NCBI GenBank assembly: GCA_016938735.1
Contig: JAFGUB010000008.1
Span: 124,001-188,000 of the forward strand
Source of the DNA: Campylobacterales bacterium
GTDB lineage: Bacteria > Campylobacterota > Campylobacteria > Campylobacterales > Sulfurimonadaceae
Direction of reading: 5' to 3'
DNA: 64,000 nt
Shown here piece after piece: positions 19,495 to 32,139 of this stretch. Under the pieces are notes generated by a model, which did not search any database, was not told the origin of the DNA, and was given only the letters and a program-made list of their open reading frames with translations. Position 1 is the stretch's first letter. The number at the start of each line of letters is the position of its first letter. The position numbers and the translations under genes are program-made.

Positions 19495-20250
19495 CTACCT
19501 ACCCATTCTCAACAGCAGCTCCTGCGCAAAGATGCCGTAGTCTTTCATCCCCTTGCCCCTTTGCAATGCGAGCACCGCAGGCTCTTGAGACTCAAACTGT
19601 TTGGAGAGTTTGATATCCACGCCGATGGGAGAGAAGAGTTTTTCGGCGCCAAAGGAGGTACGCACCCTCTCTAGTGCCTCTTGATGCTCTTTGATATGCG
19701 GGTTGAACATGACGGGTAAAATACCCACCTCGGCCAGCTCCCGCTGCGCAAAAGATGCGCTTTGATAGATGGCACGCATCATCTGTCCCACCGCCACAAC
19801 ACCCAGATGGTGCGGCACAAAGGGAATAACGACTGCATCGGCCACTTCAAGGGAATTTTTCAGCAGTGCGTCAAAAGTGGGCGGAGTGTCGATGATGCAG
19901 TAATCGAAAAAGTCGGCAATCTTTTCACGTTTGAAACGGCTTTTGAGCATCCCGCGTAGGTCGCTGTAATCATAAACATCAAAAAAAGCGAGTGCGGGCG
20001 AGAGTGTCAGACGCTCATGCACCGTCGGAATAAAGGTCTCGCTGAGCGTCGTACCCAAAAATACGGAGTGTGCCCCTACCCCCTCGGAGGGTTCGCAACC
20101 CACACCGATCGAAGCGTGCCCCTGTGTGTCAAAATCAAGCAGCAGCACAGAGTGGCTTTTGGCCAGCTCCGTTGCCAGATTGACCGCCGTAGTGGTCTTG
20201 GCGGAGCCGCCTTTGCGGTTACTAATGACAATGGTTTTCACCAGCCTCAA
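19495..20250 (-). CDS. ParA/MinD-family ATPase in the chemosensory operon
   Basis: The 251-residue protein has the deviant Walker A motif ISNRKGGSAKTTTAVNLA near the N-terminus, LLLDFDTQGHASIGVG (Walker A prime) and YCIIDTPPTFDALL (Walker B). ParA-type proteins position cargo on the nucleoid or at poles; ParC and PpfA do this for chemosensory arrays in Vibrio and Rhodobacter. Its position between the STAS gene and the kinase suggests it localises this array, which is inference. No parB gene is adjacent, arguing against chromosome segregation. The start overlaps the STAS gene by 29 bases. Confidence 0.88.
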   Translation of the reverse strand: MRLVKTIVISNRKGGSAKTTTAVNLATELAKSHSVLLLDFDTQGHASIGVGCEPSEGVGAHSVFLGTTLSETFIPTVHERLTLSPALAFFDVYDYSDLRGMLKSRFKREKIADFFDYCIIDTPPTFDALLKNSLEVADAVVIPFVPHHLGVVAVGQMMRAIYQSASFAQRELAEVGILPVMFNPHIKEHQEALERVRTSFGAEKLFSPIGVDIKLSKQFESQEPAVLALQRGKGMKDYGIFAQELLLRMGR

Positions 20251-20494
20251 AGCCCTCCAGCACTTTTTGGTAGATCTTCACCTCGTCGCCATAAAGTATC
20301 TCTCCCTCATAGAGCTTGCAGTAGGCCATTACGAGTTGCAACAGCGCAAAATGGGCATCCTCACACGCACTAAAATCAAATGTGACCTTCTGCGGTGCAA
20401 CCTGCTGCAAAAATTCACGTGCGCCCACCACCGCATCTTCATACACCACCCCCTCAAGGCGCAATGTATCTTCCTCAAACTGCACACCCATCAC
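20222..20494 (-). CDS. STAS-domain-like protein without the usual phosphorylatable serine motif
   Basis: The 90-residue protein has the strand-helix layout of a STAS domain: LRLEGVVYEDAVVGAREFL, then VTFDFSACEDAHFALLQLVMAYCK. The canonical D-S-S/T-G site is replaced by ACEDAHF, so phosphorylation as in SpoIIAA is unlikely. It overlaps the CheW-CZB gene upstream by four bases and the ParA-like gene downstream. Small STAS proteins beside ParA and CheA may act as adaptors; that role is inferred from context. Confidence 0.7.
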   Translation of the reverse strand: MMGVQFEEDTLRLEGVVYEDAVVGAREFLQQVAPQKVTFDFSACEDAHFALLQLVMAYCKLYEGEILYGDEVKIYQKVLEGFEAGENHCH

Positions 20495-21267
20495 GACACC
20501 TCCCGTGCGGGCAGATCGATAGAGCGAATCACATTGATCAGCTTGCCGTCAAGCTCGATCACGCCGCTAAGATCAAGAAATTCGCTCACCTTGTTGTGCT
20601 CATCGGAGGCCTGAATCATCTTCTCATCAATATGGGCGATATCGATGATGGTAACGACCTTGATGGCAAATGCCGTCTTGCTGCCGTGATAGAGCAACAA
20701 CTTCTGCAAGGAGTTAGCAACGATATTAAACTCCGCAATGAATTGATTGATGTGGTACATCGTCAAATCATAAATCTCCATCACACTCGTATCGACCTCA
20801 TGCGAGGCTCCGGCCTGATCGCTCTTGGCCAACTCTATAACGTCAATCGCCGAATGGTGCAGACGCTTGTGAAAGTCGTTGAGCTCTTTGAGAATCTGGC
20901 TGACATGATCGTCATACGAGGTGAAGTTGTCGAGCCACTTACCCAGATTGCACAGATGCGGGTTGGTGGTTAGATGAAACGACACCCCTTTTTGAACACT
21001 GTTTTGTAGCGTCTCCACCCACACTTTGTGCTGCTGCTTCAGATCGGAAAAGAGCGCTTTGAGCTCCTCGTCATAAGTCTTGAGCCCCACCATCTGCCGA
21101 AACCCTACCACTTTGACCACGCGGTTTTCATACGACATCATCCCCTCGATAAAGGGATGAGCATTGGGAATATCGGTAATGACGGGAATCTGCGTGATGC
21201 GCTGAATATGTTCGATATCAATCGCATAACGGTTTTTGGCCACTTCAAAAATGATTAGATCTTTCAT
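20491..21267 (-). CDS. CheW-like protein with a CZB zinc-binding domain inserted in the CheW fold
   Basis: The 258-residue protein begins as CheW (DLIIFEVAKNRYAIDIEHIQRI, about residues 1-65) and ends as CheW (AFAIKVVTIIDIAHI to the end, about 185-258). Between them sits a helical region with LKQQHKVWVETL, HLCNLGKWLDNF and later histidines (FHKRLHH), matching the H-C-H-H pattern of chemoreceptor zinc-binding domains. The zinc site would be nested within the CheA/receptor coupling fold. It is a tandem paralogue of the next gene upstream and overlaps it by four bases. Confidence 0.82.
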   Translation of the reverse strand: MKDLIIFEVAKNRYAIDIEHIQRITQIPVITDIPNAHPFIEGMMSYENRVVKVVGFRQMVGLKTYDEELKALFSDLKQQHKVWVETLQNSVQKGVSFHLTTNPHLCNLGKWLDNFTSYDDHVSQILKELNDFHKRLHHSAIDVIELAKSDQAGASHEVDTSVMEIYDLTMYHINQFIAEFNIVANSLQKLLLYHGSKTAFAIKVVTIIDIAHIDEKMIQASDEHNKVSEFLDLSGVIELDGKLINVIRSIDLPAREVS

Positions 21268-22040
21268 GCTTTTCCTTTGGGTATAGTAATGGTCTCTATA
21301 ACGCTCAGCAGCCGTTTTTCATGCTCCAGCGCACCGATGATTTTGATGTATCTGCCCTCACGCAGCAGCGCGCTGTTGCGAATGATGCGCTCTTCGGGTA
21401 CCTGAATAATGCCGTCGATCAGATCGACGATCAATCCAAAGAGTCCGCCCTGCTCTGCTTTCATGATCAGTAGACGCTGCGAATCAAGCGCGACTTGATG
21501 GGTGTGCTGCGCCATCTGATCCAGATAAGAGATGGTTTGGGTGTAGTATCCATGCACTTGATGTGCTACCGCCTGCTTTGCCCTCTCTACGTCGTGCTTA
21601 CGCAGCTCCAAAACACCAACGGCGGATTTATGTAAATCCTGATGATGCCGGTTGAGCTCTCGCTTGAGCTCGCCGACCACTTCGCTATTGGTCGAAAAAG
21701 TATCGATCCAGCGCCCCAGATGACAAGCGTGCGGATCGATAGTTTTAGTAAAAGCGCAGCCACAACCGACCGCTTCATCCAGCGCTTCTATCCACTCTTG
21801 GTGCTGATGTTTCAGCTCCTCAAACATCGTTTTGACCTTCTCGACATAGTTCTCTTTTCCAATCATTGCACGAAAACTATAAACATCGAGTATCCGCTCA
21901 TCCAGACGCATCATGCCGGCACAAGCCTTGTCTTTGCCTACCGATGGGGTAAGCATCGTCACGTCTTCGATGCGCTGCACCTGCTCAAGCTCAATGGCGT
22001 AGCGCAAAGACTCCACTTGAAAGAGTAAATAACCGGTCAT
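21264..22040 (-). CDS. CheW-like protein with a nested CZB domain (paralogue)
   Basis: The 258-residue protein has the same plan and length as its neighbour: a CheW N-half (GYLLFQVESLRYAIELEQVQRI), a central CZB with LKHQHQEWIEAL, HACHLGRWIDTF and LNRHHQDLHKSA, then a CheW C-half (FGLIVDLIDGIIQV to LLSVIETI). The two differ enough that the duplication is not recent. It starts one base after the cheA stop region and precedes its twin with an ATGA overlap. It is likely to couple receptors to CheA and to sense zinc or an oxidant through the CZB site. Confidence 0.82.
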   Translation of the reverse strand: MTGYLLFQVESLRYAIELEQVQRIEDVTMLTPSVGKDKACAGMMRLDERILDVYSFRAMIGKENYVEKVKTMFEELKHQHQEWIEALDEAVGCGCAFTKTIDPHACHLGRWIDTFSTNSEVVGELKRELNRHHQDLHKSAVGVLELRKHDVERAKQAVAHQVHGYYTQTISYLDQMAQHTHQVALDSQRLLIMKAEQGGLFGLIVDLIDGIIQVPEERIIRNSALLREGRYIKIIGALEHEKRLLSVIETITIPKGKA

Positions 22041-22041
22041 T

Positions 22042-24759
22042 CTATCCTACTTGCTCATAGGCACGTTTAAGCTGATGGGCAATACCTAAAATACCCAAAG
22101 GATCAAGCACCATGATGATCTGCCCGTTGCCCAGCAGCGCCGTACCGCTAAAGACGGGATGATTCTCCATAACCCCCTCAAGCGGTTTTTGCACCACGTC
22201 AAGCTGCCCCAAAAGCTCATTGACGACCACCGCCAAAAGATTGCCTTTGACGCTAAGCACCACGATGGGCAGCGCTTTGTTGCCGAGCGCCTTCTCATCA
22301 AGCATACTCTTGATAAAGAGCAGCGGGATGACTTCGCCGCGGATGTAGATAAACGGCTCGTTGTGCAGATACTCGATCTGATCGCGTTCGATTTTAACGA
22401 TCTCGTTGACATTCTCCATCGGCAAGCCGTAATGCACGCCGGTCATGGTTACATGTAAGAGCGACGTTACCGCCAAAGAGACCGGGATGGAGAGCGTAAT
22501 CGTGGTGCCTTGATTGGGTCTTGTCGCAATACCGATCGTTCCGCCGAAGCTCTCGATCGATTTGCGTACGACGTCCATCCCGACACCGCGACCGCTGTAT
22601 TCGCTGATCGTCTCAGCCGTCGAAAGTCCGGGCAGCATCACCAACTCGGCGCGCTCCTTGTCACTGAGCGTTTCGATCTGCTCTAAGCTCATCAGCCCCT
22701 TCTCCAGCACCTTTTGTACGACCCGATCCACGTTGATTCCGGCACCGTCATCAAGGATCTCTATGATGATCTTATCGGACTGTGCATAAGCGTTAAGGCT
22801 CACCAAGCCCTCTTCGTCCTTGCCTTTTTTGCGTCTGACTTCAGGGGTCTCAATGCCGTGATCGAGCGAGTTACGCATGATATGGATCATCGGATCGGCC
22901 AGCATCTCGATCATGTTTTTATCAAGCTTCGTTTCGCCGCCGTTCATGACTAGGCGCACTTTTTTCCCCAAATTTTTGGAGATTTCGCGTACGAGCTTGG
23001 GATAACGGTCAAAGACGTAGGAGATCGGCAGCATCCGCATCGACATGATCAGATCTTGTAGCTGCTCGCTAAGTCGGTTGATGAAGGTGTACTTCTCCAT
23101 GATCGCGCGCTTGATCAGATCAACATTCATGGCATAAACGTTGTCGGCCAGATAGGGCAGAGAGTTTTTGGCGACCAACAGTTCGCCGACGATGTTCATC
23201 AACTGATCGATCGACTCCTGATCGATTTTGACGGTTTTACCGATGACGTTTTTAGAGGCATTTTTCTTCTCATCACTCTGAATTTCGGGGCGCTTGATCA
23301 CTACTGCAGGTGCGCTCATTTCAATTTGCGGCTCCGGCTCTATCACCTCTTCCAAGACCATCTGCGGCTCAGGAGTGATCGTTTGAGGCAAGGCTTGCTG
23401 CAACAATCCAAGCTTCTCGCCCAGCCACAAACGCATGGACTCGCCGTTCTCAAACTCCGGCATCTGATCATCAAAGCAGCGCATTCGCTCTAAAATCGCC
23501 CCCACCCGGGCCACCGTTGCATCATCACCTCCGGCAACCTCAAGGGCTCTGTACTGCTGCACCAAAATCGCATTCATCCCCTGATGCATCGCTGCACCTT
23601 GAAGCGTTTTAGCAGCCGATGGCTTACGTGGCTCTTCATTTGCCGCGGGTAGCCCTTGCGGCTGAGACCTGGCACGTTCACGTAACAGAGGCTCGTCCTC
23701 TTGATAAAGATAGACACTTGATGCTTGCATCGCTTCAAAAAAACCTCCGAGCCGTGGCACATCTTCACGACGGATCAGCGGCAGAAGAGCCTGCAGACGA
23801 CGTAGCTGGGCATACTGCAAGGTCTGCGTACCGATCAGAGGTAGCACCTTGGCTATGGAGTCGGCAATGACCGTCGCGTCGGGGGTTACATGTAACTCGC
23901 GCAGTAGATCGAGACGGTGTCCCGCTTCGCCTTGATCAATTGAGAGCAACGTGGCGATATCCAAAGGAGCGATTTTCAACTCATCCATGAAATTAAATAG
24001 CGCGTCTTCGATCTCACTGTAAACACCATAGACAAATGCGGTCATCTCAGTGCGCAAACTCAGGCCGTCAGGATCGTCGAACCCCCCAAGCACCGATTTT
24101 GCGGAATTTTCGCTCATGCAGCAGTGCACACCCACTACCTGCTCACCTAAAAGCGACAAGGCATAAACGGGATCATTCCCATAGACCATACAGGAGTCGT
24201 CTACATCAAAAACGATCGCGTAAAGCTGAACTGATGCACACTCCTCTTGCGTCAAATGCTCTATTTTAAAGGGGAGTTCGGCCGTCATCGAAGAGAGAAA
24301 ACGAAGTGGAATATTGACAATACTACTGATCTGCTCTATCGGCGTAAACGGAACACTCCACGCTTCATGCGCTTCGTCATCTCGGCCCATTTGCGCGCGT
24401 AATTCCACCACCACACGCTCAAGCCGCTCGGGATCAGCATCGACAATCTCTCCGCTCTCTTCAGCAGCTTCAATCAGGTTCATCACCTCATCAAAGGCAT
24501 CGTAGAGCGCATCCGTCATCGAATCAACATAAGAGAGCTTCCCTCCGCGCAGCATATCAAGTAGGTCTTCTGCCTGGTGCGTGATCTGTTTGACCGCCTC
24601 AAACCCTACAATACCTGAGCCACCCTTAAGGGTATGCGCCGCGCGAAAGACGGCGTTAAGCAGCTCCGGATCGTCCGAACCTATCTTCTCAAGATTCTGA
24701 TCGATAAATCCCAGATTCTCCCGCGCCTCTTGTAAAAACTGCTCTAACAACGGATTCAT
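22042..24759 (-). CDS. cheA: Chemotaxis histidine kinase CheA, long P2 region
   Basis: The 905-residue protein has an Hpt domain with phosphoacceptor His42 in RAAHTLKGG, a long poorly conserved region (about 140-520) including a predicted folded part and an acidic linker, a dimerisation helix pair (GKTVKIDQESIDQLMNIVGELLV), a HATPase domain (MIHIMRNSLDHGIE, DDGAGI, GRGVGMDVV) and a C-terminal CheW-like domain. No receiver is attached, unlike the CheA-Y fusion typical of Campylobacter and Helicobacter. Two TACATGTA copies (22450, 23887) are both read as LHV. It lies 9 bases after cheY. Confidence 0.95.
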   Translation of the reverse strand: MNPLLEQFLQEARENLGFIDQNLEKIGSDDPELLNAVFRAAHTLKGGSGIVGFEAVKQITHQAEDLLDMLRGGKLSYVDSMTDALYDAFDEVMNLIEAAEESGEIVDADPERLERVVVELRAQMGRDDEAHEAWSVPFTPIEQISSIVNIPLRFLSSMTAELPFKIEHLTQEECASVQLYAIVFDVDDSCMVYGNDPVYALSLLGEQVVGVHCCMSENSAKSVLGGFDDPDGLSLRTEMTAFVYGVYSEIEDALFNFMDELKIAPLDIATLLSIDQGEAGHRLDLLRELHVTPDATVIADSIAKVLPLIGTQTLQYAQLRRLQALLPLIRREDVPRLGGFFEAMQASSVYLYQEDEPLLRERARSQPQGLPAANEEPRKPSAAKTLQGAAMHQGMNAILVQQYRALEVAGGDDATVARVGAILERMRCFDDQMPEFENGESMRLWLGEKLGLLQQALPQTITPEPQMVLEEVIEPEPQIEMSAPAVVIKRPEIQSDEKKNASKNVIGKTVKIDQESIDQLMNIVGELLVAKNSLPYLADNVYAMNVDLIKRAIMEKYTFINRLSEQLQDLIMSMRMLPISYVFDRYPKLVREISKNLGKKVRLVMNGGETKLDKNMIEMLADPMIHIMRNSLDHGIETPEVRRKKGKDEEGLVSLNAYAQSDKIIIEILDDGAGINVDRVVQKVLEKGLMSLEQIETLSDKERAELVMLPGLSTAETISEYSGRGVGMDVVRKSIESFGGTIGIATRPNQGTTITLSIPVSLAVTSLLHVTMTGVHYGLPMENVNEIVKIERDQIEYLHNEPFIYIRGEVIPLLFIKSMLDEKALGNKALPIVVLSVKGNLLAVVVNELLGQLDVVQKPLEGVMENHPVFSGTALLGNGQIIMVLDPLGILGIAHQLKRAYEQVG

Positions 24760-24768
24760 CGCATCTCC

Positions 24769-25134
24769 TTAAGCATCTACCAGCAAATCAACGTACGCTC
24801 TGAGTTGATCGGGTTTGATCGGTTTGGTTTCAAATAGATTGGCACCCACTTTGTACGCTTCAACCTTATCAATCTCTTGTGCCTGAGTCGTGATCATAAT
24901 CACGGGGGTGAAGGCGTATCTGGGCTGTTTTCGCAACTCCGCAATAAAGGAGTACCCATCCATAATCGGCATATTCACATCCACGAGATAGAGATCCACC
25001 TCGGCATCCAGCGAACGTTCAAGCGCCTCCATACCATTTTCGGCCTCAACAACCGTAATACCCGAATCTTTTAAAATGGCGCCGTGATAGCTTCTCACCG
25101 TTTTTGAATCGTCCACAACCATGATCGTTGCCAT
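24769..25134 (-). CDS. cheY: CheY-like single receiver protein
   Basis: The 121-residue protein is a stand-alone receiver with VVDDSKTVRS, phosphoacceptor Asp in LYLVDVNMPIMDGYSF near residue 53, MITTQAQ and ETKPIKPDQL. It is the likely phosphate acceptor from the adjacent CheA. It is one of two single receivers in the operon. Confidence 0.9.
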   Translation of the reverse strand: MATIMVVDDSKTVRSYHGAILKDSGITVVEAENGMEALERSLDAEVDLYLVDVNMPIMDGYSFIAELRKQPRYAFTPVIMITTQAQEIDKVEAYKVGANLFETKPIKPDQLRAYVDLLVDA

Positions 25135-25142
25135 ATATACTC

Positions 25143-25523
25143 CTAAAAAAATTCGATTGATTCGTCATCGTTGACATGATGCACATTACCCGTAAACGCC
25201 TGCCTTCGCTCTTTTGCCCGCTCAAGCACATCCTCAAGCTCTTGATTGAGCCGCGTCGCATCGGCTGGTTCCGCAGCGCTTAGGTGCAGTTGACGCACAC
25301 TCTCTATCGCCTCTATCGTGGCACTTAGCTGCTGGGCGATGATATCTTGGTATTGCAGGGCTTCGGCCGCGTCGTCATCGATGCCCACACCCTGTCGTTC
25401 AAGTAAGGCAGCAAGCTTGAGCATCGACTCTTTGGAGAGCGCAATCACATCAGCTTCTACCGATCGAATATGTTCAAGCAGGCGTTCGACGTTTTGCAGC
25501 AGCATCATTGTCGCTTCCATCAT
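25143..25523 (-). CDS. Short CheZ-like phosphatase candidate
   Basis: The 126-residue all-helical protein has LQYQDIIAQQLSATIEAI near residue 60, resembling the CheZ/CheX active-site helix (a D/Q-containing D-x-x-x-Q pattern), and an acidic C-terminal tail NDDESIEFF reminiscent of the CheY-binding peptide of CheZ. It is about half the length of E. coli CheZ. It sits between two receiver genes, a sensible place for a CheY-P phosphatase. The assignment rests on these short motifs and context. Confidence 0.6.
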   Translation of the reverse strand: MMEATMMLLQNVERLLEHIRSVEADVIALSKESMLKLAALLERQGVGIDDDAAEALQYQDIIAQQLSATIEAIESVRQLHLSAAEPADATRLNQELEDVLERAKERRQAFTGNVHHVNDDESIEFF

Positions 25524-25907
25524 TCAAGAGGGGAGACGCAAAACCCGCGTAATCGCCTGCTTGAGCTGCGCAGGATTAAAAGGTTTGGTGATCCAACCTG
25601 TAAGCCCTAACTTTTTACCTTGTTCTTTGAGTTCCGGCTTCGTCTCCGTCGTCAGCATCAATATCGGCGTGCGCTGCGCACTGGGTACTTGTCTGAGCGC
25701 TTGCAAAAACTCAAACCCGTTCATATTAGGCATGTTGAGGTCTGTAATAATCAGTTCCGGAGCCACTACTCCGCTTTTGATCTCACTTAGCGCCACTCTG
25801 GCATCAAGATACTGTTTGACTTCGATCGGCATCGAACTGGTCACCATACGGGTTGAAGCGAGCGCTGTTTCACTATCGTCGATGAAAATTACTAATGGCA
25901 TTGGCAT
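25524..25907 (-). CDS. Second single-domain receiver protein
   Basis: The 127-residue receiver has IFIDDSETALAS, phosphoacceptor in LIITDLNMPNMNGFEF near residue 60, MLTTETK and ITKPFNPAQL. It is distinct from the other receiver in the operon. One may drive the motor or output and the other may act as a phosphate sink. It lies directly before the CheZ-like gene (stop TGA immediately followed by ATG) and after cheR. Confidence 0.88.
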   Translation of the reverse strand: MPMPLVIFIDDSETALASTRMVTSSMPIEVKQYLDARVALSEIKSGVVAPELIITDLNMPNMNGFEFLQALRQVPSAQRTPILMLTTETKPELKEQGKKLGLTGWITKPFNPAQLKQAITRVLRLPS

Positions 25908-25912
25908 ATCTC

Positions 25913-26743
25913 CTATTTTTGATAAACTAAAGTGGTATCAATTTTTTTTGCATTAAAGACGGAAACAATCCGGCTCATGTACTCCGCGTGCCCAAGGAGC
26001 ACATATCCTCCCGGATTGAGCATGTCATAAAAGGTCATCGCCACCTCTTTACGGCTGGCATCGTCAAAATAGATCAGCATATTTCTTGAAAAGATAATGT
26101 CAAATTTGCCGAGCTTGCGCATCTCGGTACGATCAAAGACGTTCGCCACCTTAAAATCGACCGCCCCCACAAGATCATCGACTATGGCATATCCCAACCC
26201 TTTTTTCCGGAACCATTGCGCGAGGACATTTTTGGGAATAGCATGTACCGATCGGGTGCTAAACTCTCCTTTTCGTGCCTTGTCAATGACCGTCGAATCG
26301 ATATCGATACCTACAATTTCAATGTCACGCTGATCGACAATCTTACCTTCCTCCAAAATATGCAGCACGATCGAATAGGGTTCTTCTCCCGTCGAACAGG
26401 GAGCAGAAAGAATTCGAAGCGGTGCACTTTTGGGGCGGCTACGGTTGAGCTCTGGGAGAAGATAATTCGCTACCACTTCGAATTGATTGACTTCTCTGTA
26501 AAAGTAGGTTTCATTGACGGTAATCCCATTCATCAACTCTTGAAATTCTGTGCCGTCTTTGTCCTCAAAGCGAAGCTTAAAAAAGTATTTTCTGAAATTA
26601 TCGGCACCGATTTTTTTGCATCGATCATCGACAAACTTGGCCAACTTTTCGAAATGCTTCTCTTCCTCGAGATAAATACCGCTTTTGCGGTAGATGAACT
26701 CGCTCATCTTGATAAAGTTTTCGCTTGAAAGCAGATAAGACAT
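25913..26743 (-). CDS. cheR: Chemoreceptor glutamate methyltransferase CheR
   Basis: The 276-residue protein has the CheR N-terminal helical domain and the SAM-dependent domain with LRILSAPCSTGEEPYSIV near residue 105 and FDIIFSRNMLIYFDDASRK near 215. It methylates glutamates on chemoreceptor cytoplasmic helices. No C-terminal pentapeptide-binding extension is seen. The operon's receptor also lacks a pentapeptide. Confidence 0.93.
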   Translation of the reverse strand: MSYLLSSENFIKMSEFIYRKSGIYLEEEKHFEKLAKFVDDRCKKIGADNFRKYFFKLRFEDKDGTEFQELMNGITVNETYFYREVNQFEVVANYLLPELNRSRPKSAPLRILSAPCSTGEEPYSIVLHILEEGKIVDQRDIEIVGIDIDSTVIDKARKGEFSTRSVHAIPKNVLAQWFRKKGLGYAIVDDLVGAVDFKVANVFDRTEMRKLGKFDIIFSRNMLIYFDDASRKEVAMTFYDMLNPGGYVLLGHAEYMSRIVSVFNAKKIDTTLVYQK

Positions 26744-26746
26744 TGA

Positions 26747-27370
26747 TTAACCTCGAATCATACGCACCGCATTATCAACACTGAACTCCACATACGGATC
26801 GTGATTGAAATGGGCTTTGAGTGACTCTAGCAAGGGAATGTCTTCAGGCTGACCGATCTCTGCCATATAATCCACTGCCGTCATGGCAACGTTAATATCG
26901 GACTCGCTCTCAAGCAACTCGACAAGCATATCGCGCGATTCGGGGAAATTGACGTCACCTAATACATTGATCGCAAAAATACGCAAATCACGATCATCAC
27001 CAATCAAGAACTTAACAATGTAATACTTGATCGCTTCGCCGTAGTCTTGCAACACCCCGATCGCCAGATTGCGAATATAAGCATTGTGCAATTTAAGCAG
27101 CTCCATGACGGCTTCTATCGGCGCTTCAAGCGGATCCATCAAAGAGAGCGTTGAAGCGGCTTCGGCGTCAACTGCTTTCCCGGTTGATATATCCTTGAGT
27201 ATTTCGACAAGATAAAGCGCACCACCCGGGAACTTCACCATTTCATCCATGGCATACTTGCGCTCTTCAAAAGCATCGTGTATTTCAAAATAGCTTATAG
27301 CCTCTTCAAGCGTCTCAAATTTCGGAAAGGTTGCTACCTCTTGAATCGTGTGTTTTTTGATTAGCGCCAT
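26747..27370 (-). CDS. HEAT-repeat protein between cheB and cheR
   Basis: The 207-residue protein is built of helical repeats, for example NAYIRNLAIGVLQDYG, DRDLRIFAINVLGDVN and DINVAMTAVDYMAEIG, typical of HEAT/armadillo-like modules. Such proteins usually bind other proteins. Its placement 3 bases from cheR and 12 from cheB suggests an accessory part of the adaptation machinery, which is inference. Confidence 0.8.
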   Translation of the reverse strand: MALIKKHTIQEVATFPKFETLEEAISYFEIHDAFEERKYAMDEMVKFPGGALYLVEILKDISTGKAVDAEAASTLSLMDPLEAPIEAVMELLKLHNAYIRNLAIGVLQDYGEAIKYYIVKFLIGDDRDLRIFAINVLGDVNFPESRDMLVELLESESDINVAMTAVDYMAEIGQPEDIPLLESLKAHFNHDPYVEFSVDNAVRMIRG

Positions 27371-27382
27371 GACGGTCCCTCT

Positions 27383-28435
27383 TTACAACGTGACAATTTT
27401 TTTAACGATCTGCGGAAAATCGAGCTGCTCGGTCACTCCACCACGATCATAAGCCTCTTTAGGCATCCCGTAAACGGTAGCACTGGCTTCACTTTCGCCG
27501 ATGGTATACCCACCCGCCTGTTTGATGGCGACCATACCATCCGCACCGTCATCACCGATTCCAGTCAAAATCACAGCAATGATATTTTTTCCTCCGAACT
27601 GCTTGAGCGCGCTATGAAACATCTCATCGACACTTGGTTTGAAGAATCTTCCATTGTCCTCTTTCTCTTCACGAATCACAAACTTTCCGGAAACTTTTTT
27701 ACTGAAATGCATGTGTACGCCGCCTCTAGCGACATAGATATGCCCCGGCAACAGCTCTTGATTGTGCGCCGACTCATGTACATTCAAGGCACTGACTCTG
27801 TCTAAGCGCTCCGCAAAAGCCTTCGTAAACTTCTCAGGCATATGCTGAACGACACAGACGGGATAGGGGTAATGCGGCGGCAACGAGGCGCAAATTTGCT
27901 CTATCAAACCTGGACCGCCTGTCGAAGAACCCACCAACACCACCTTGCTAAACTCAGTCACTTGAGGTGTCGTTTTCACACGGCTCTCTCCTGATGAACG
28001 CATCCGCTGCACAGGACGCCGCCCCATACGCTCTAGCCGACGCTTTGGAATTGCGCTGAGTTGTTGCACTTTCTCAAGAATATCATCACGGTTTTCCCGC
28101 TTACCGACATTCATCGTGCCCGGTTTGGCTATGTAATCCAAAGCACCGAGCTCAAGCGCTTCAATCGTCGTTGAAGCATCTTCCGATGTCAGTGAGCTGA
28201 TCATCAGTATCGGCGTCGGATGGCTCTTCATAATCTCTTTGACCGCCGTTAGCCCATCCATGACCGGCATATTGACATCCATCGTAATGAGATCAAAAGC
28301 CTTTTTTTTGACACATTCGACTGCTTCTTGCCCGTTTTTGGCCGTCTCGATCTCATACCCTAGCGTTTCGATTATTTCACTCAACTGTTTGCGTACCAAA
28401 GCAGAGTCGTCAACAATCAGTACCTTCTTGCTCAT
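27383..28435 (-). CDS. cheB: Chemoreceptor methylesterase/deamidase CheB
   Basis: The 350-residue protein has an N-terminal receiver (VLIVDDSALVRK, phosphoacceptor in ITMDVNMPVMDG near residue 56, AKPGT) and a C-terminal methylesterase domain with catalytic Ser in VLVGSSTGGPG, His in VVQHMPEKFT and Asp in LTGIGDDGADGM. It removes methyl groups from receptors when phosphorylated by CheA. Its ATG overlaps the triple-CheW stop by four bases. Confidence 0.95.
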   Translation of the reverse strand: MSKKVLIVDDSALVRKQLSEIIETLGYEIETAKNGQEAVECVKKKAFDLITMDVNMPVMDGLTAVKEIMKSHPTPILMISSLTSEDASTTIEALELGALDYIAKPGTMNVGKRENRDDILEKVQQLSAIPKRRLERMGRRPVQRMRSSGESRVKTTPQVTEFSKVVLVGSSTGGPGLIEQICASLPPHYPYPVCVVQHMPEKFTKAFAERLDRVSALNVHESAHNQELLPGHIYVARGGVHMHFSKKVSGKFVIREEKEDNGRFFKPSVDEMFHSALKQFGGKNIIAVILTGIGDDGADGMVAIKQAGGYTIGESEASATVYGMPKEAYDRGGVTEQLDFPQIVKKIVTL

Positions 28436-29805
28436 GCGGCAACCTTTTCATGCGATAACTGATGAATATCAAAAAGAAGTGCCAACCGTTTGCCTCCGTC
28501 AAGGTAGATTACATGTGAAAAGAACGTGCTGTGTTCTCGCTCTTCTCTAAGCTGCGTTTTGGAGATCCCCATAACATCGCTCACGCTTTCGACACAAAAT
28601 GCAATGCGATACCCTTTCATTTGGCAAACAACAATTTTCTGTTCTGCCGAGGCACGCTGCGGCTTTCCGAGCCATTCGTAAATCGATACTACCGTTACAA
28701 CCTGTCCGCGAATATTAATCACCCCATGAACATAAAGAGGCGCATCCACAAAAGGAGTCACAGGCATCCAATCAATAATTTCGACAACATCTTCTATGCT
28801 GATGGCATACTCTTCTTGATCCAATTTGAAGATAATAACCTCCATCGCGATATCCCGTTCTACTTTGGACTGCTTCATCGACAGTGATGCATCATTACCT
28901 TGTTCAGTGTCACTAAACAACTGATCCATCACTTCAGCACCGATGATGGACACAAGCTGATCTTCATTGCGGATCACGCCGCTGATTTTTTGGTCTGCAA
29001 AGTTCGGCGGCATCACATCAATCAGGCCCTTCTCCACCATTTGAATATCGAGTATCTGATCGACCACCAACCCCAAAGTTCTTCCTTCGCGTTCCGTCAC
29101 CAAAACCCTGTTTTTATCGCTCAAACGATCATCAAATCCAAAAAAACGACGCAAATCAGCGATCATCAAGAGTTGCTCTCTAAGCGAGATCATGCCGAGT
29201 ATCTCCTGTCTGCTACCGGCAATCGGCACAATTTCCGATGGGAAAGCGATGATCTCTTTGAGCAGATCAATCGCGATGGCATAGTGCTCTTGAGACATAC
29301 GCACAAAAAGATAGCGTTCTGCACTGCTTTGAGTCTGCTTGACCGCAGAGCGGAGTGCATACCCCTCTCGCACTTCTATCGGCACAAAAGAGCGAATCTT
29401 CACGCCGGATAAAAGCTGATGAATGTCAAGTATCTGCACGATCTCTTGTTGATACTTATAAAGGGCTATAACCGCATCTTGGGGATCCTCGATCAGTTCG
29501 ACATCGCGCGCTTCAACACCAACCGTATCACTCACCTCTGATACCAATAAAGCGTCAACGCCATTACTCAATGTCAACAGGCGGGTATGCTCGCTCTCTA
29601 ACTCCACCGCATCCGATGAAAGCAACATGCTCAGGTCAAATACCGTCACAATGTTGCCGCTGACAGCACTAAGCCCAACAATATTAGGTGAAGAGAGCAC
29701 GACGGGTGTCACAAACGGTACGCGTAAAATCTGATCGATCAATGCAGTCTCAATACCGTAACTGACTGAACCGTCTTTGACGATCAAGATCTCTTCAAAA
29801 TGCAT
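28432..29805 (-). CDS. Triple CheW-domain coupling protein
   Basis: The 457-residue protein contains three consecutive CheW-like domains, starting near residues 4 (EEILIVKDGSVSYGIET), 165 (RYLFVRMSQEHYAIAIDLLKEI) and 322 (MEVIIFKLDQEEYAISIEDVVEI). Tandem CheW proteins can cross-link receptors and CheA. Three domains here plus two separate CheW-CZB proteins is rich for one array. It begins two bases after the receptor gene. Confidence 0.88.
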   Translation of the reverse strand: MHFEEILIVKDGSVSYGIETALIDQILRVPFVTPVVLSSPNIVGLSAVSGNIVTVFDLSMLLSSDAVELESEHTRLLTLSNGVDALLVSEVSDTVGVEARDVELIEDPQDAVIALYKYQQEIVQILDIHQLLSGVKIRSFVPIEVREGYALRSAVKQTQSSAERYLFVRMSQEHYAIAIDLLKEIIAFPSEIVPIAGSRQEILGMISLREQLLMIADLRRFFGFDDRLSDKNRVLVTEREGRTLGLVVDQILDIQMVEKGLIDVMPPNFADQKISGVIRNEDQLVSIIGAEVMDQLFSDTEQGNDASLSMKQSKVERDIAMEVIIFKLDQEEYAISIEDVVEIIDWMPVTPFVDAPLYVHGVINIRGQVVTVVSIYEWLGKPQRASAEQKIVVCQMKGYRIAFCVESVSDVMGISKTQLREEREHSTFFSHVIYLDGGKRLALLFDIHQLSHEKVAA

Positions 29806-29807
29806 AC

Positions 29808-31694
29808 TTAACCTTGCTGGAGCTCATCAGCCATTACAGCCAACTCTTCAACACCTTCACTGATATGCGTGATGGTTTCAATAATCAGCTCACTGGCCTT
29901 TCGTGACTCCATTGCATTGCGCGCAGAGAGCTCCACCGCTTTTTGAATTTCACTGACCCCGATCAATACCTGATTGAGCCCTTCAAGATTTTGATCGTTA
30001 ATCGTCTTAAGACCCGTAAAGCGATCAAGCAATTCAATCAACATGTTGGTAATCGACTCGACATCGCCGACGAGGCGGTTAATCTGATGGCGCTCACTGT
30101 CTTGCCCCCCCAAAAGCTTGAGCCAATCGGTGCGCACCATGTCAATTTCGCTGTTCATCGATTCAATCGTGTCGTTAATCTTGTCGGTATTGGCTTCGGA
30201 ATCTTTGGCAAGATTGCGGATATCTGAGCTAACAACGGCAAAGCCCTTTCCAAAATCGCCGGCACGCGCAGCTTCGATCGATCCGCTGATGGCCAGCATA
30301 TTGAGCTGAATAATGGAGTTGGAGATATTGCCGACCGTCTTGTCTACGTTGCGCGTCTCTTTAACGATCACTTCGAGTTCACGGCTGGCGGTGCCCCCTT
30401 GAGACATAGAGGCTTCAAAAGCGCTGCCGATACTCTTAAGCTCATTGCGCACGTCACTGAAGGAGACTTTGAGCAGATCGAAATTGCGTCGACCGATCTC
30501 GATGAGCGCATTAATGTCTTTGGAATTTTGGATACCGCCCTCAACCAGCTCTTTATTGGACAAGACGCTTTGATTGGTCGTATTGGAAGATTTTTCAATC
30601 TGATTAAGTGCGTCGTTGACCTCATTGAGCGATTTTTGGATATCCTCCATGGCGCTGCCGATCGCATCGGCGGAAGCAGCAATCTCTTCAGCAGACTTCA
30701 TCGTATCGGTTGAGTATTTAAGCTCCTCAGCCAGATTAGAGAGCTCTTTGATGTCGTCTTCCGTCTGCGCCAAAGCATTGGACTGCACTTCGATGCCGCT
30801 GAGCGTTCGCTCTACCGAGTGAGCGATATCTTGTGACGCCTTTGCAATTTCCGCGCTTCCATCATTGATCTTACCGATTGTGGTTCCGAGATGACGCGTA
30901 AAACTGTTCATATTGCGCGCTGCTTCGACCGTAAAGGTGGCGATTTTGGTGAGTTCCTCCATCTTTGCCGTCAGTTTCGTGCCGCGTCCGCCGGTGTTCT
31001 CAATGATTTCAGTCGTACCGACAATGCTCTTGATGATATTGTCGATACTGCCTTGAATTTTATTGACCAGTTCGGAGATGAATTCAGCATTTTTTTCACT
31101 CTCTCCTGCCAATGCCCGAGTTTCGTCGGCGACAACCGCGAAGCCCTTACCATGCTCTTTAGCACGGCTCGCTTCAATGGCAGCATTAAGCGCAAGCAAA
31201 TTCGTCTGATCGGCGATTTTGGCAATAAATCCAACCGCTTCACCGATGTTTTCCGAAGACGCCTTAAGCTCTTCTGATTTTTTGGAAGACTGTTTGGCCA
31301 CATCAACCGCATTATTCATGCGTTCTACCGACTGATTGATGGTTTTGACCGCAACCATAACGTTTTCACCCGTAGAGAGTGTCGATGAGATCACGGTATC
31401 GATGCTACTGCCCATGCGGGTAATGTTGCTACTGATTCCTTTAACGTTTTTAAGCGCTTGTTCGCTTGCGCCGCTGTTCTCTTCAGCCGCTGTAGCGATC
31501 TGTTCCATTGAGGATTTAAGTTGTTCGATTGCACTGACGCTCTCTTGCGCATTGTCCAAAATGGTCGTCGCCACGCCTGCGATGCTTTCGGAGATCTGCT
31601 GCTGTTTGGCCAAAGTGCGCTGACGACGCTTATCACCCGACTGATTTGCTACCGCTGATGCGGAAGTGGTATTGCTTCTTTTGACTAGTGCCAT
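29808..31694 (-). CDS. Cytoplasmic chemoreceptor with two signalling hairpin tips and no sensor domain
   Basis: The 628-residue protein has no membrane helix or recognisable ligand-binding domain. Two receptor tips are visible: [20 protein letters not shown] with [15 protein letters not shown] (about residues 160-200), and a divergent second, NSIIQLNMLAISGSIEAARAG with GKGFAVVSSDIRNLA (about 450-490). Both sit in long heptad-rich helices. There is no C-terminal CheR-binding pentapeptide (it ends DELQQG). The gene upstream encodes an Aer/CetB-like PAS protein, so sensing probably comes from that partner. Confidence 0.87.
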   Translation of the reverse strand: MALVKRSNTTSASAVANQSGDKRRQRTLAKQQQISESIAGVATTILDNAQESVSAIEQLKSSMEQIATAAEENSGASEQALKNVKGISSNITRMGSSIDTVISSTLSTGENVMVAVKTINQSVERMNNAVDVAKQSSKKSEELKASSENIGEAVGFIAKIADQTNLLALNAAIEASRAKEHGKGFAVVADETRALAGESEKNAEFISELVNKIQGSIDNIIKSIVGTTEIIENTGGRGTKLTAKMEELTKIATFTVEAARNMNSFTRHLGTTIGKINDGSAEIAKASQDIAHSVERTLSGIEVQSNALAQTEDDIKELSNLAEELKYSTDTMKSAEEIAASADAIGSAMEDIQKSLNEVNDALNQIEKSSNTTNQSVLSNKELVEGGIQNSKDINALIEIGRRNFDLLKVSFSDVRNELKSIGSAFEASMSQGGTASRELEVIVKETRNVDKTVGNISNSIIQLNMLAISGSIEAARAGDFGKGFAVVSSDIRNLAKDSEANTDKINDTIESMNSEIDMVRTDWLKLLGGQDSERHQINRLVGDVESITNMLIELLDRFTGLKTINDQNLEGLNQVLIGVSEIQKAVELSARNAMESRKASELIIETITHISEGVEELAVMADELQQG

Positions 31695-31710
31695 TGATCC
31701 TCTCCCCTTA

Positions 31711-32139
31711 TTAATCTAGTGTTGCGTAGAGCTCTTGAGCTCTTTTAATCTCTTCTCTTGAAGGCTTCACCCGAATCGAGACATACTTGATGTTGCCATT
31801 CGTATCGGTAGAGCGTAAAACCGTCGCATAGACCCAATAGTAGCCTCCTCCCTTGCGTGCATTCTTAACATAACCAGTCCAAAACCCTTTGCTTTGCACA
31901 TCGTCCCAAAGTGATTTAAACGCCGCGCGTGGCATATCCGGATGACGCACAACATTGTGCGGCTGGCCGATCAGATCTGCCTTGCTCATATTGGCAACTT
32001 TTAAAAATGACTCGCTCGCATACGTAACGATCCCTTTTTCATCGGTCTCCGACAAAAGGTAGAGATCGTTGTAGAGAAGCTCTCCGTCTTCTAAAAACGT
32101 CAACCCTTCCGCGCTGAGCGTTTTGTCTTTTACTGACAT
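31711..32139 (-). CDS. Stand-alone Aer/CetB-like PAS energy-taxis sensor
   Basis: The 142-residue protein is a single PAS domain with the Aer-type signature NVVRHPDMPRAAFKSLWDD near residue 63, and GFWTGYVKNARKGGGYYWV. In Aer and Campylobacter CetB this PAS binds FAD and reports redox or energy state. CetB works with a separate receptor, CetA. Here the receptor gene follows 16 bases downstream, so a bipartite redox receptor is likely. GGAGG precedes the ATG. It is the first gene of the chemosensory operon. Confidence 0.88.
   Translation of the reverse strand: MSVKDKTLSAEGLTFLEDGELLYNDLYLLSETDEKGIVTYASESFLKVANMSKADLIGQPHNVVRHPDMPRAAFKSLWDDVQSKGFWTGYVKNARKGGGYYWVYATVLRSTDTNGNIKYVSIRVKPSREEIKRAQELYATLD

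What the first reader, a model, noticed from the sequence alone, without database searches (positions are those of the whole stretch)
29808..32139. Bipartite redox receptor: lone PAS sensor plus sensorless receptor with two signalling tips
The PAS protein has the Aer/CetB signature and precedes a soluble receptor that lacks any sensing domain. The receptor has two hairpin tips, the second divergent. Two tips in one chain could bridge two array contacts or build a different lattice. Campylobacter CetA/CetB is a precedent for the split, but CetA is membrane-bound with one tip.
Basis: partly seen in the sequence, partly recalled or inferred. Interest (0 to 1): 0.7.

Follow-up and report, generated by a model that had tools for sequence, protein, structure and literature searches.

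The report
Redox-sensor subunit for cytoplasmic sensory arrays
Next to a known kind of two-ended chemoreceptor (DosM), which in cholera bacteria ties together two layers of an internal sensory array of unknown purpose, these sulfur-oxidising bacteria always carry a small flavin-type redox sensor, which suggests what this array senses here.

Summary
Window 31711-32139(-) encodes a lone Aer-like PAS protein; 16 nt downstream, 29808-31694(-) encodes a soluble receptor with two MCP signalling hairpins, the second divergent.

The receptor is not a new design. It is DosM, the double-signalling-domain receptor of F9 chemosensory systems. It sits in a complete F9 cluster (dosM, triple cheW, cheB, HEAT protein, cheR, cheY, cheA). 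The divergent second tip is a conserved family trait, found from Campylobacterota to Spirochaetota and Pseudomonadota. Tip-to-tip spacing is exactly 300 residues in 101 of 101 sequences. An AlphaFold2 model supports a real second hairpin. In Vibrio cholerae, DosM is known to bridge two baseplates.

The new part is the PAS protein. In Sulfurimonadaceae it lies directly upstream of dosM in all 71 loci with enough flank. In 151 family genomes it occurs in 47 of 47 with DosM and 1 of 104 without (a 57%-complete assembly). It is absent beside dosM in every other lineage examined. Its key FAD contacts match E. coli Aer. No other receptor is encoded in these clusters.

Best reading: a dedicated flavin-redox input subunit of a HAMP-less, two-layer cytoplasmic array. 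Physical binding to DosM is inferred, not shown.

The parts
31711..32139 (-). Lone Aer/CetB-like PAS protein, 142 aa, first gene of the cluster
   Evidence: Pfam PAS_3 E=1.6e-11; Aer 8dik E=8e-28; FAD-contact residues matching Aer H53, R57, F66, W70, N85, R115 (nearly) invariant in 79 orthologues
29808..31694 (-). DosM: soluble chemoreceptor with two signalling hairpins, 628 aa
   Evidence: two MCPsignal matches; alignment with DosM of Alpha-/Betaproteobacteria and Leptospiraceae; AlphaFold2 model
31110..31202 (-). Tip 1 (residues 165-195), canonical
   Evidence: near-invariant in 21 DosM sequences
30210..30302 (-). Tip 2 (residues 465-495), family-specific variant (M-L-A-[VI]-[SN]-G-[SN]-I-E-[AS]-A-R-A-G)
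   Evidence: conserved in all DosM sequences; hairpin in the model
30702..30716 (-). Mid-rod helix break (residues 327-331, S-T-D motif), halfway between the tips
   Evidence: AlphaFold2 break at 328-330; S328 and T329 invariant in 43 sequences
30477..30518 (-). Residues 393-406 (DINALIEIGRRNFD): stretch most specifically conserved in the PAS-bearing lineage; candidate PAS dock
   Evidence: conservation 0.95 against 0.42 in DosM without PAS
29973..30056 (-). Residues 547-574, which face 393-406 across hairpin 2; second half of the candidate dock
   Evidence: conservation 0.83-0.85 against 0.41-0.46
28432..29805 (-). CheW3: three concatenated CheW domains
   Evidence: three CheW stretches, E=1.8e-63
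27383..28435 (-). CheB
26747..27370 (-). HEAT-repeat protein, constant in F9 clusters
25913..26743 (-). CheR
25524..25907 (-). CheY-like receiver
25143..25523 (-). 126-aa protein with conserved QyQDIIxQQL and C-terminal IEFF; possibly a CheZ-like phosphatase
   Evidence: 56 orthologues aligned; no Pfam match
24769..25134 (-). CheY-like receiver
22042..24759 (-). CheA kinase of the F9 cluster
   Evidence: Hpt, H-kinase_dim, HATPase, CheW
20491..22040 (-). Two CheW proteins with an inserted CZB (zinc-binding) domain
   Evidence: CheW and CZB matches
19495..20250 (-). ParA-like ATPase, possibly for array positioning
   Evidence: AAA_31 E=5.9e-27; found next to the cluster in many loci

Best explanation
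The pair belongs to a complete F9-class chemosensory system. SHOWN: DosM has two signalling hairpin sequences at a fixed 300-residue spacing (tail-to-tail in the model), and the PAS gene is strictly linked to dosM in this family. KNOWN from V. cholerae: DosM is a rod whose two ends sit in two CheA/CheW baseplates and holds a cytoplasmic sandwich array together. INFERRED: here the rod does the same with the F9 CheA and CheW3. [quoted passage not shown] Its redox-dependent shape change alters hairpin packing and so F9 CheA activity. It thus supplies the sensory input that DosM lacks, as a HAMP-less split receptor feeding a two-layer array. The two CheW-CZB proteins may add a second, zinc/oxidant input at the baseplate.
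For: Gene content and order are the F9 signature and match Alpha- and Betaproteobacterial F9 clusters gene for gene. Tip spacing is 300 residues in 101/101, and tip 2 is conserved across three phyla. The model's second hairpin matches a known receptor hairpin. PAS lies directly upstream of dosM in 71/71 Sulfurimonadaceae loci with enough flank, gap mostly 7-19 nt. PAS orthologues (71% identity or more) occur in 47/47 family genomes with DosM and 1/104 without; the exception is a 57%-complete assembly with the hit 753 bases from a contig start. A 52-61% PAS paralogue is not tied to DosM. FAD-contact positions are conserved in 79 orthologues (contacts from PMC9668731), including positions mutated in the FAD pocket of CetB2 (PMC12442639). 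No second receptor lies in any of these neighbourhoods. Split PAS/receptor pairs work in C. jejuni and M. gryphiswaldense, where CetB2 binds CetA2 (PMC2628428, PMC12442639). Mo et al. state that sensor-less DosM arrays need extra receptors or sensory proteins for input (PMC9321776).
Against: No binding, flavin or array data exist for these proteins. DosM lacks the HAMP domain proposed as the CetB docking site. DosM in other lineages manages without this PAS, so it is not needed for assembly in general. A straight 300-residue helix is about 45 nm, while V. cholerae F9 baseplates are 35 nm apart (PMC3964821, PMC7184735); V. cholerae DosM could not be fetched, so it is unclear whether the rod here is longer or bent. 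The PAS model has only moderate confidence (pLDDT 64.5). Operon co-inheritance alone could give linkage without physical contact.
Confidence: 0.6

Rival explanations
1. The PAS protein is the redox input of the F9 system but acts on another part, such as CheW3, CheA, the HEAT protein or receptors encoded elsewhere, not on DosM.
For: PAS is linked to the whole cluster, not only to DosM; the HEAT protein and CheW-CZB proteins are other possible interfaces. In V. cholerae, DosM shares the array with other receptors (PMC7534058).
Against: PAS is always next to dosM in locus after locus, and known split systems pair an adjacent PAS and receptor (PMC12442639). A stretch of hairpin 2 is specifically conserved only in PAS-bearing DosM.
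Confidence: 0.22
2. Only tip 1 signals. Tip 2 is a specialised structural end that anchors the rod in the second baseplate, or in a different partner, without controlling a kinase.
For: Tip 2 differs from tip 1 at core positions in every DosM (A to G invariant, N to S in most) and is nearly as constant as tip 1.
Against: In V. cholerae both ends integrate into CheA/CheW baseplates (PMC7534058). Many tip residues (E474, R477, G484, F485, V487-V488) are kept in tip 2. This rival can hold together with the best explanation.
Confidence: 0.3
3. The PAS protein is an ordinary CetB that serves membrane CetA-type receptors, and lies next to dosM by chance or shared expression.
For: The same genome has CetB-CetA-like pairs on other contigs.
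Against: The PAS groups with DosM-linked orthologues plus one lone paralogue (99/98 support), apart from CetA-adjacent PAS proteins; it is present in 47/47 genomes with DosM and 1/104 without.
Confidence: 0.06
4. The rod folds back at the mid-helix break, so both tips touch the same baseplate and make a one-layer lattice with unusual stoichiometry.
For: AlphaFold2 places a helix break exactly midway (328-330), with a conserved S-T-D motif.
Against: Cryo-ET of V. cholerae DosM shows an extended rod between two layers (PMC7534058); the single-chain model cannot tell the two apart.
Confidence: 0.07

Closest known systems
V. cholerae cluster I / F9 system with DosM (VC1403) and triple CheW (VC1402) (PMC7534058, PMC3964821, PMC7184735)
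   Same: Double signalling domain receptor without sensor, concatenated triple CheW, F9 CheA, soluble array components
   Different: Here a dedicated lone PAS gene precedes dosM and no other receptor is encoded in the cluster; V. cholerae has other receptors (VC1394, VC1406) as suspected inputs. V. cholerae sequences were not compared directly.
Partial F9 sets of Nitratiruptor and Nautilia (PMC9321776)
   Same: Campylobacterota, dosM-cheW3-cheBR
   Different: Those lack cheA and cheY in the cluster; the Sulfurimonadaceae cluster is complete
CetA/CetB of Campylobacter jejuni (PMC2628428) and CetA2/CetB2 of Magnetospirillum gryphiswaldense (PMC12442639)
   Same: Lone Aer-like PAS protein encoded beside a sensor-less receptor; same flavin-pocket residues
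   Different: CetA is a membrane receptor with HAMP and one tip; DosM is soluble, HAMP-less and has two tips; the PAS belongs to a separate subfamily
E. coli Aer (PMC9668731)
   Same: PAS fold and key FAD contacts (H53, R57, W70, N85, R115 positions)
   Different: In Aer the PAS is fused to the receptor

Membership tests
F9 chemosensory class | DosM receptor with two signalling domains in tandem and no sensor domain | tested here: met
F9 chemosensory class | CheW with three concatenated CheW domains (CheW3) | tested here: met
   three CheW stretches in window 28432-29805
F9 chemosensory class | cheA, cheY, cheB and cheR in the same cluster (full set) | tested here: met
   same order as annotated Alpha-/Betaproteobacterial clusters
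F9 chemosensory class | Receptor without transmembrane segment | tested here: met
   maximum Kyte-Doolittle 19-residue mean 0.95; all-helical coiled-coil model
F9 chemosensory class | 44H receptor length class | tested here: inconclusive
   residues 326-628 match the T. maritima receptor hairpin over 303 residues without length change; heptad class not computed with the published models
F9 chemosensory class | Two-layer cytoplasmic array in the cell | not testable with these tools
   needs cryo-electron tomography
CetA/CetB bipartite (HAMP/PAS pair) receptors | Lone Aer-like PAS protein encoded next to a receptor without its own sensor domain | tested here: met
CetA/CetB bipartite (HAMP/PAS pair) receptors | Receptor partner with transmembrane region and HAMP domain | tested here: not met
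   no HAMP in Pfam scan; no hydrophobic segment
CetA/CetB bipartite (HAMP/PAS pair) receptors | PAS groups with CetA-adjacent CetB proteins | tested here: not met
   separate clade, 99/98, from the two CetA-adjacent PAS proteins of this genome; long branches make deeper placement unsure
CetA/CetB bipartite (HAMP/PAS pair) receptors | Physical interaction of PAS protein and receptor | not testable with these tools
   no complex prediction available; no experiment
Aer-type FAD-binding PAS | Conserved FAD-contact residues (Aer G28, H53, R57, F66, W70, N85, R115) | tested here: met
   present in the window protein and (nearly) invariant in 79 orthologues
Aer-type FAD-binding PAS | Bound FAD | not testable with these tools
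   needs purified protein

The most novel reading that the evidence does not exclude
Sulfurimonadaceae have turned the scaffold receptor of a two-layer cytoplasmic array into a redox receptor by adding a detachable FAD-PAS subunit that docks on the coiled-coil shaft without a HAMP domain. This would be the first identified sensory input of an F9 array and a new way of coupling a PAS sensor to a chemoreceptor.
Probability: 0.45. Interest if true: 0.65.

Novelty: new variant of a known kind. Interest (0 to 1): 0.5.

Why it matters
What F9/DosM arrays sense and do is an open question: deleting the F9 cheA in V. cholerae gives no detectable phenotype under standard conditions (PMC7534058), and Mo et al. 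argue that the arrays need extra sensory proteins (PMC9321776). A PAS gene tied to DosM in 47 of 47 genomes gives a specific, testable candidate input, flavin-reported redox state, in environmental bacteria that live at redox boundaries. It also offers a HAMP-free way to study how a PAS domain controls a chemoreceptor, and a natural two-subunit module for building redox control into a soluble array. It extends full F9 systems to Campylobacterota, where the main text of the earlier survey reports only partial sets.

Tried and rejected
Two tips as a new design: rejected, it is DosM. Tip 2 as a decaying copy: rejected, conserved across phyla with fixed spacing. CetB orthology: not supported by the PAS tree. 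Promoter upstream of the PAS gene: no sigma-70-like site found, and sigma-54-like matches across the window were no more than chance. VIA-align also ranked unrelated long-helix proteins (TTYH channels, pore-forming toxins) above the chemoreceptors; they align with 4-10% identity and are discarded as general helical-bundle matches. The lone-PAS layout was not seen in the Alpha-/Betaproteobacterial, Leptospiraceae or two distant Campylobacterota loci. Whether any DosM has a fused PAS was not searched exhaustively.

Full report
What is there. On the minus strand, 31711-32139 encodes a 142-residue single-PAS protein and 29808-31694 a 628-residue receptor; the 16-nt gap holds a ribosome-binding-like sequence. 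The PAS is closest among solved structures to the E. coli Aer PAS by sequence (E=8e-28) and by fold (Foldseek TM 0.85 on the target, 43% identity), although the AlphaFold2 model is only moderately confident (pLDDT 64.5). The receptor carries two MCPsignal matches and no sensor, HAMP or membrane segment.

The receptor is DosM. Downstream genes are, in order, a triple-CheW protein, CheB, a HEAT-repeat protein, CheR, CheY, a 126-aa protein, CheY and CheA, followed by two CheW-CZB proteins and a ParA-like ATPase. DosM plus CheW3 are the defining parts of the F9 class (PMC9321776), and V. cholerae VC1403/VC1402 are the studied case (PMC7534058). Annotated plasmid clusters from Methylobacterium, Sphaerotilus, Eleftheria and Azospirillum have the same order dosM-cheW3-cheB-HEAT-cheR-cheY-cheA. 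Methylosinus has a broken-up annotation of the same region.

The second tip. An alignment of 21 DosM sequences down to 27% identity shows a constant tip-2 motif, M-L-A-[VI]-[SN]-G-[SN]-I-E-[AS]-A-R-A-G, distinct from canonical tips; in E. coli Tsr numbering (from my own knowledge) the changes fall at N381-A383. The distance between the tips is exactly 300 residues in all 101 sequences measured (some loci in that count duplicate one another). The AlphaFold2 model (pLDDT 87.9) has a hairpin turn at 182, a helix break at 328-330 almost exactly midway, and a continuous helical assignment through tip 2. That tip 2 nevertheless turns back is indicated by superposition: residues 326-628 fit the T. 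maritima receptor hairpin 2ch7 222-524 over 303 residues at 3.2 A with no register change. The Z of 13.5 is within the range where long helices can match by chance, so the gapless coverage and sequence homology carry the argument. The likely architecture is two receptor hairpins joined tail to tail. Cryo-ET in V. cholerae shows such a rod with one signalling end in each of two baseplates (PMC7534058).

The PAS protein. Of 78 loci fetched with DosM as query, all 71 Sulfurimonadaceae loci with enough upstream sequence have the PAS gene directly upstream of dosM, mostly 7-19 nt away. The Leptospiraceae, proteobacterial and two distant Campylobacterota loci do not. Among 151 genomes of the window's family, 47 have the DosM tip-2 signature; all 47 carry a PAS orthologue of 71% identity or more, and only one of 104 DosM-less genomes does, a 57%-complete assembly with the hit 753 bases from a contig start (Fisher p 1.5e-38, not corrected for relatedness). 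A second PAS paralogue at 52-61% identity occurs with and without DosM, so linkage is specific to this PAS. Nine of 397 genomes across the phylum have the tip-2 signature, all in this family.

Flavin site. Positions matching Aer G28, H53, R57, H58, F66, W70, N85 and R115 are conserved in nearly all 79 aligned orthologues. These include residues contacting FAD in the Aer crystal structure (PMC9668731) and positions mutated in the CetB2 FAD pocket (PMC12442639). Flavin binding is therefore likely but not shown.

How it probably works. No other chemoreceptor is encoded in any of the fetched Sulfurimonadaceae neighbourhoods. The window genome has two CheA kinases, one in this cluster and one in an F3 cheV-A-W cluster elsewhere. 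The simplest mechanism is that the PAS protein is the redox input of the F9 array and docks on DosM. A stretch of hairpin 2 (393-406, containing RRNFD) is conserved at 0.95 in PAS-bearing DosM against 0.42 in others. It faces 547-574, another lineage-specific stretch, across the hairpin (pairing inferred from a turn near residue 480). This is a candidate docking site, inferred from conservation only; the whole lineage is more uniform than the outgroup, so the contrast is suggestive, not proof.

Relation to CetA/CetB. The genome also has PAS genes next to CetA-like receptors, and a lone paralogue. The DosM-linked PAS forms a supported clade with that lone paralogue, apart from the CetA-adjacent ones and from Aer. 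With no HAMP and no membrane anchor in DosM, the pair works like CetA/CetB but is not a member of that family.

Limits. No direct interaction evidence; no complex prediction possible; V. cholerae DosM sequence not available here; the predicted straight rod (about 45 nm from 300 residues at 0.15 nm) is longer than the 35-nm spacing in V. cholerae (PMC3964821, PMC7184735), which is unexplained. The main text of Mo et al. reports only partial F9 sets in Campylobacterota; their supplementary tables could not be read, so a mention of Sulfurimonas there cannot be excluded.

Noticed in passing
window 25143-25523 (-): 126-aa protein between the two cheY genes has a conserved QyQDIIxQQL motif and C-terminal IEFF; the DxxxQ spacing and acidic-aromatic tail resemble a CheZ-type CheY phosphatase, although Pfam gives no match.
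   Followed up: partly
window 20491-22040 (-): Two tandem CheW proteins with an inserted CZB zinc-binding domain beside cheA, a possible second (zinc or oxidant) input at the baseplate; CheW-CZB is a known minor class (PMC8262984).
   Followed up: partly
window 26747-27370 (-): A HEAT-repeat protein between cheB and cheR is constant in F9 clusters from Campylobacterota, Leptospiraceae and Alpha-/Betaproteobacteria; its role is unknown.
   Followed up: no
L073:8938-10824: dosM appears split into two ORFs (283 and 274 aa), a frameshift or assembly error.
   Followed up: no
L123:3537-4967 (window genome contig C31): CetA-like receptor beside a CetB-like PAS gene is interrupted in frame (a TAG inside the MCP match) and may be a pseudogene or sequencing error.
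   Followed up: no
L084 (Methylosinus trichosporium pOB3b1): The F9 cluster region is annotated only as fragments, and dosM has no annotated gene in one of the two records, suggesting decay or frameshifts.
   Followed up: no
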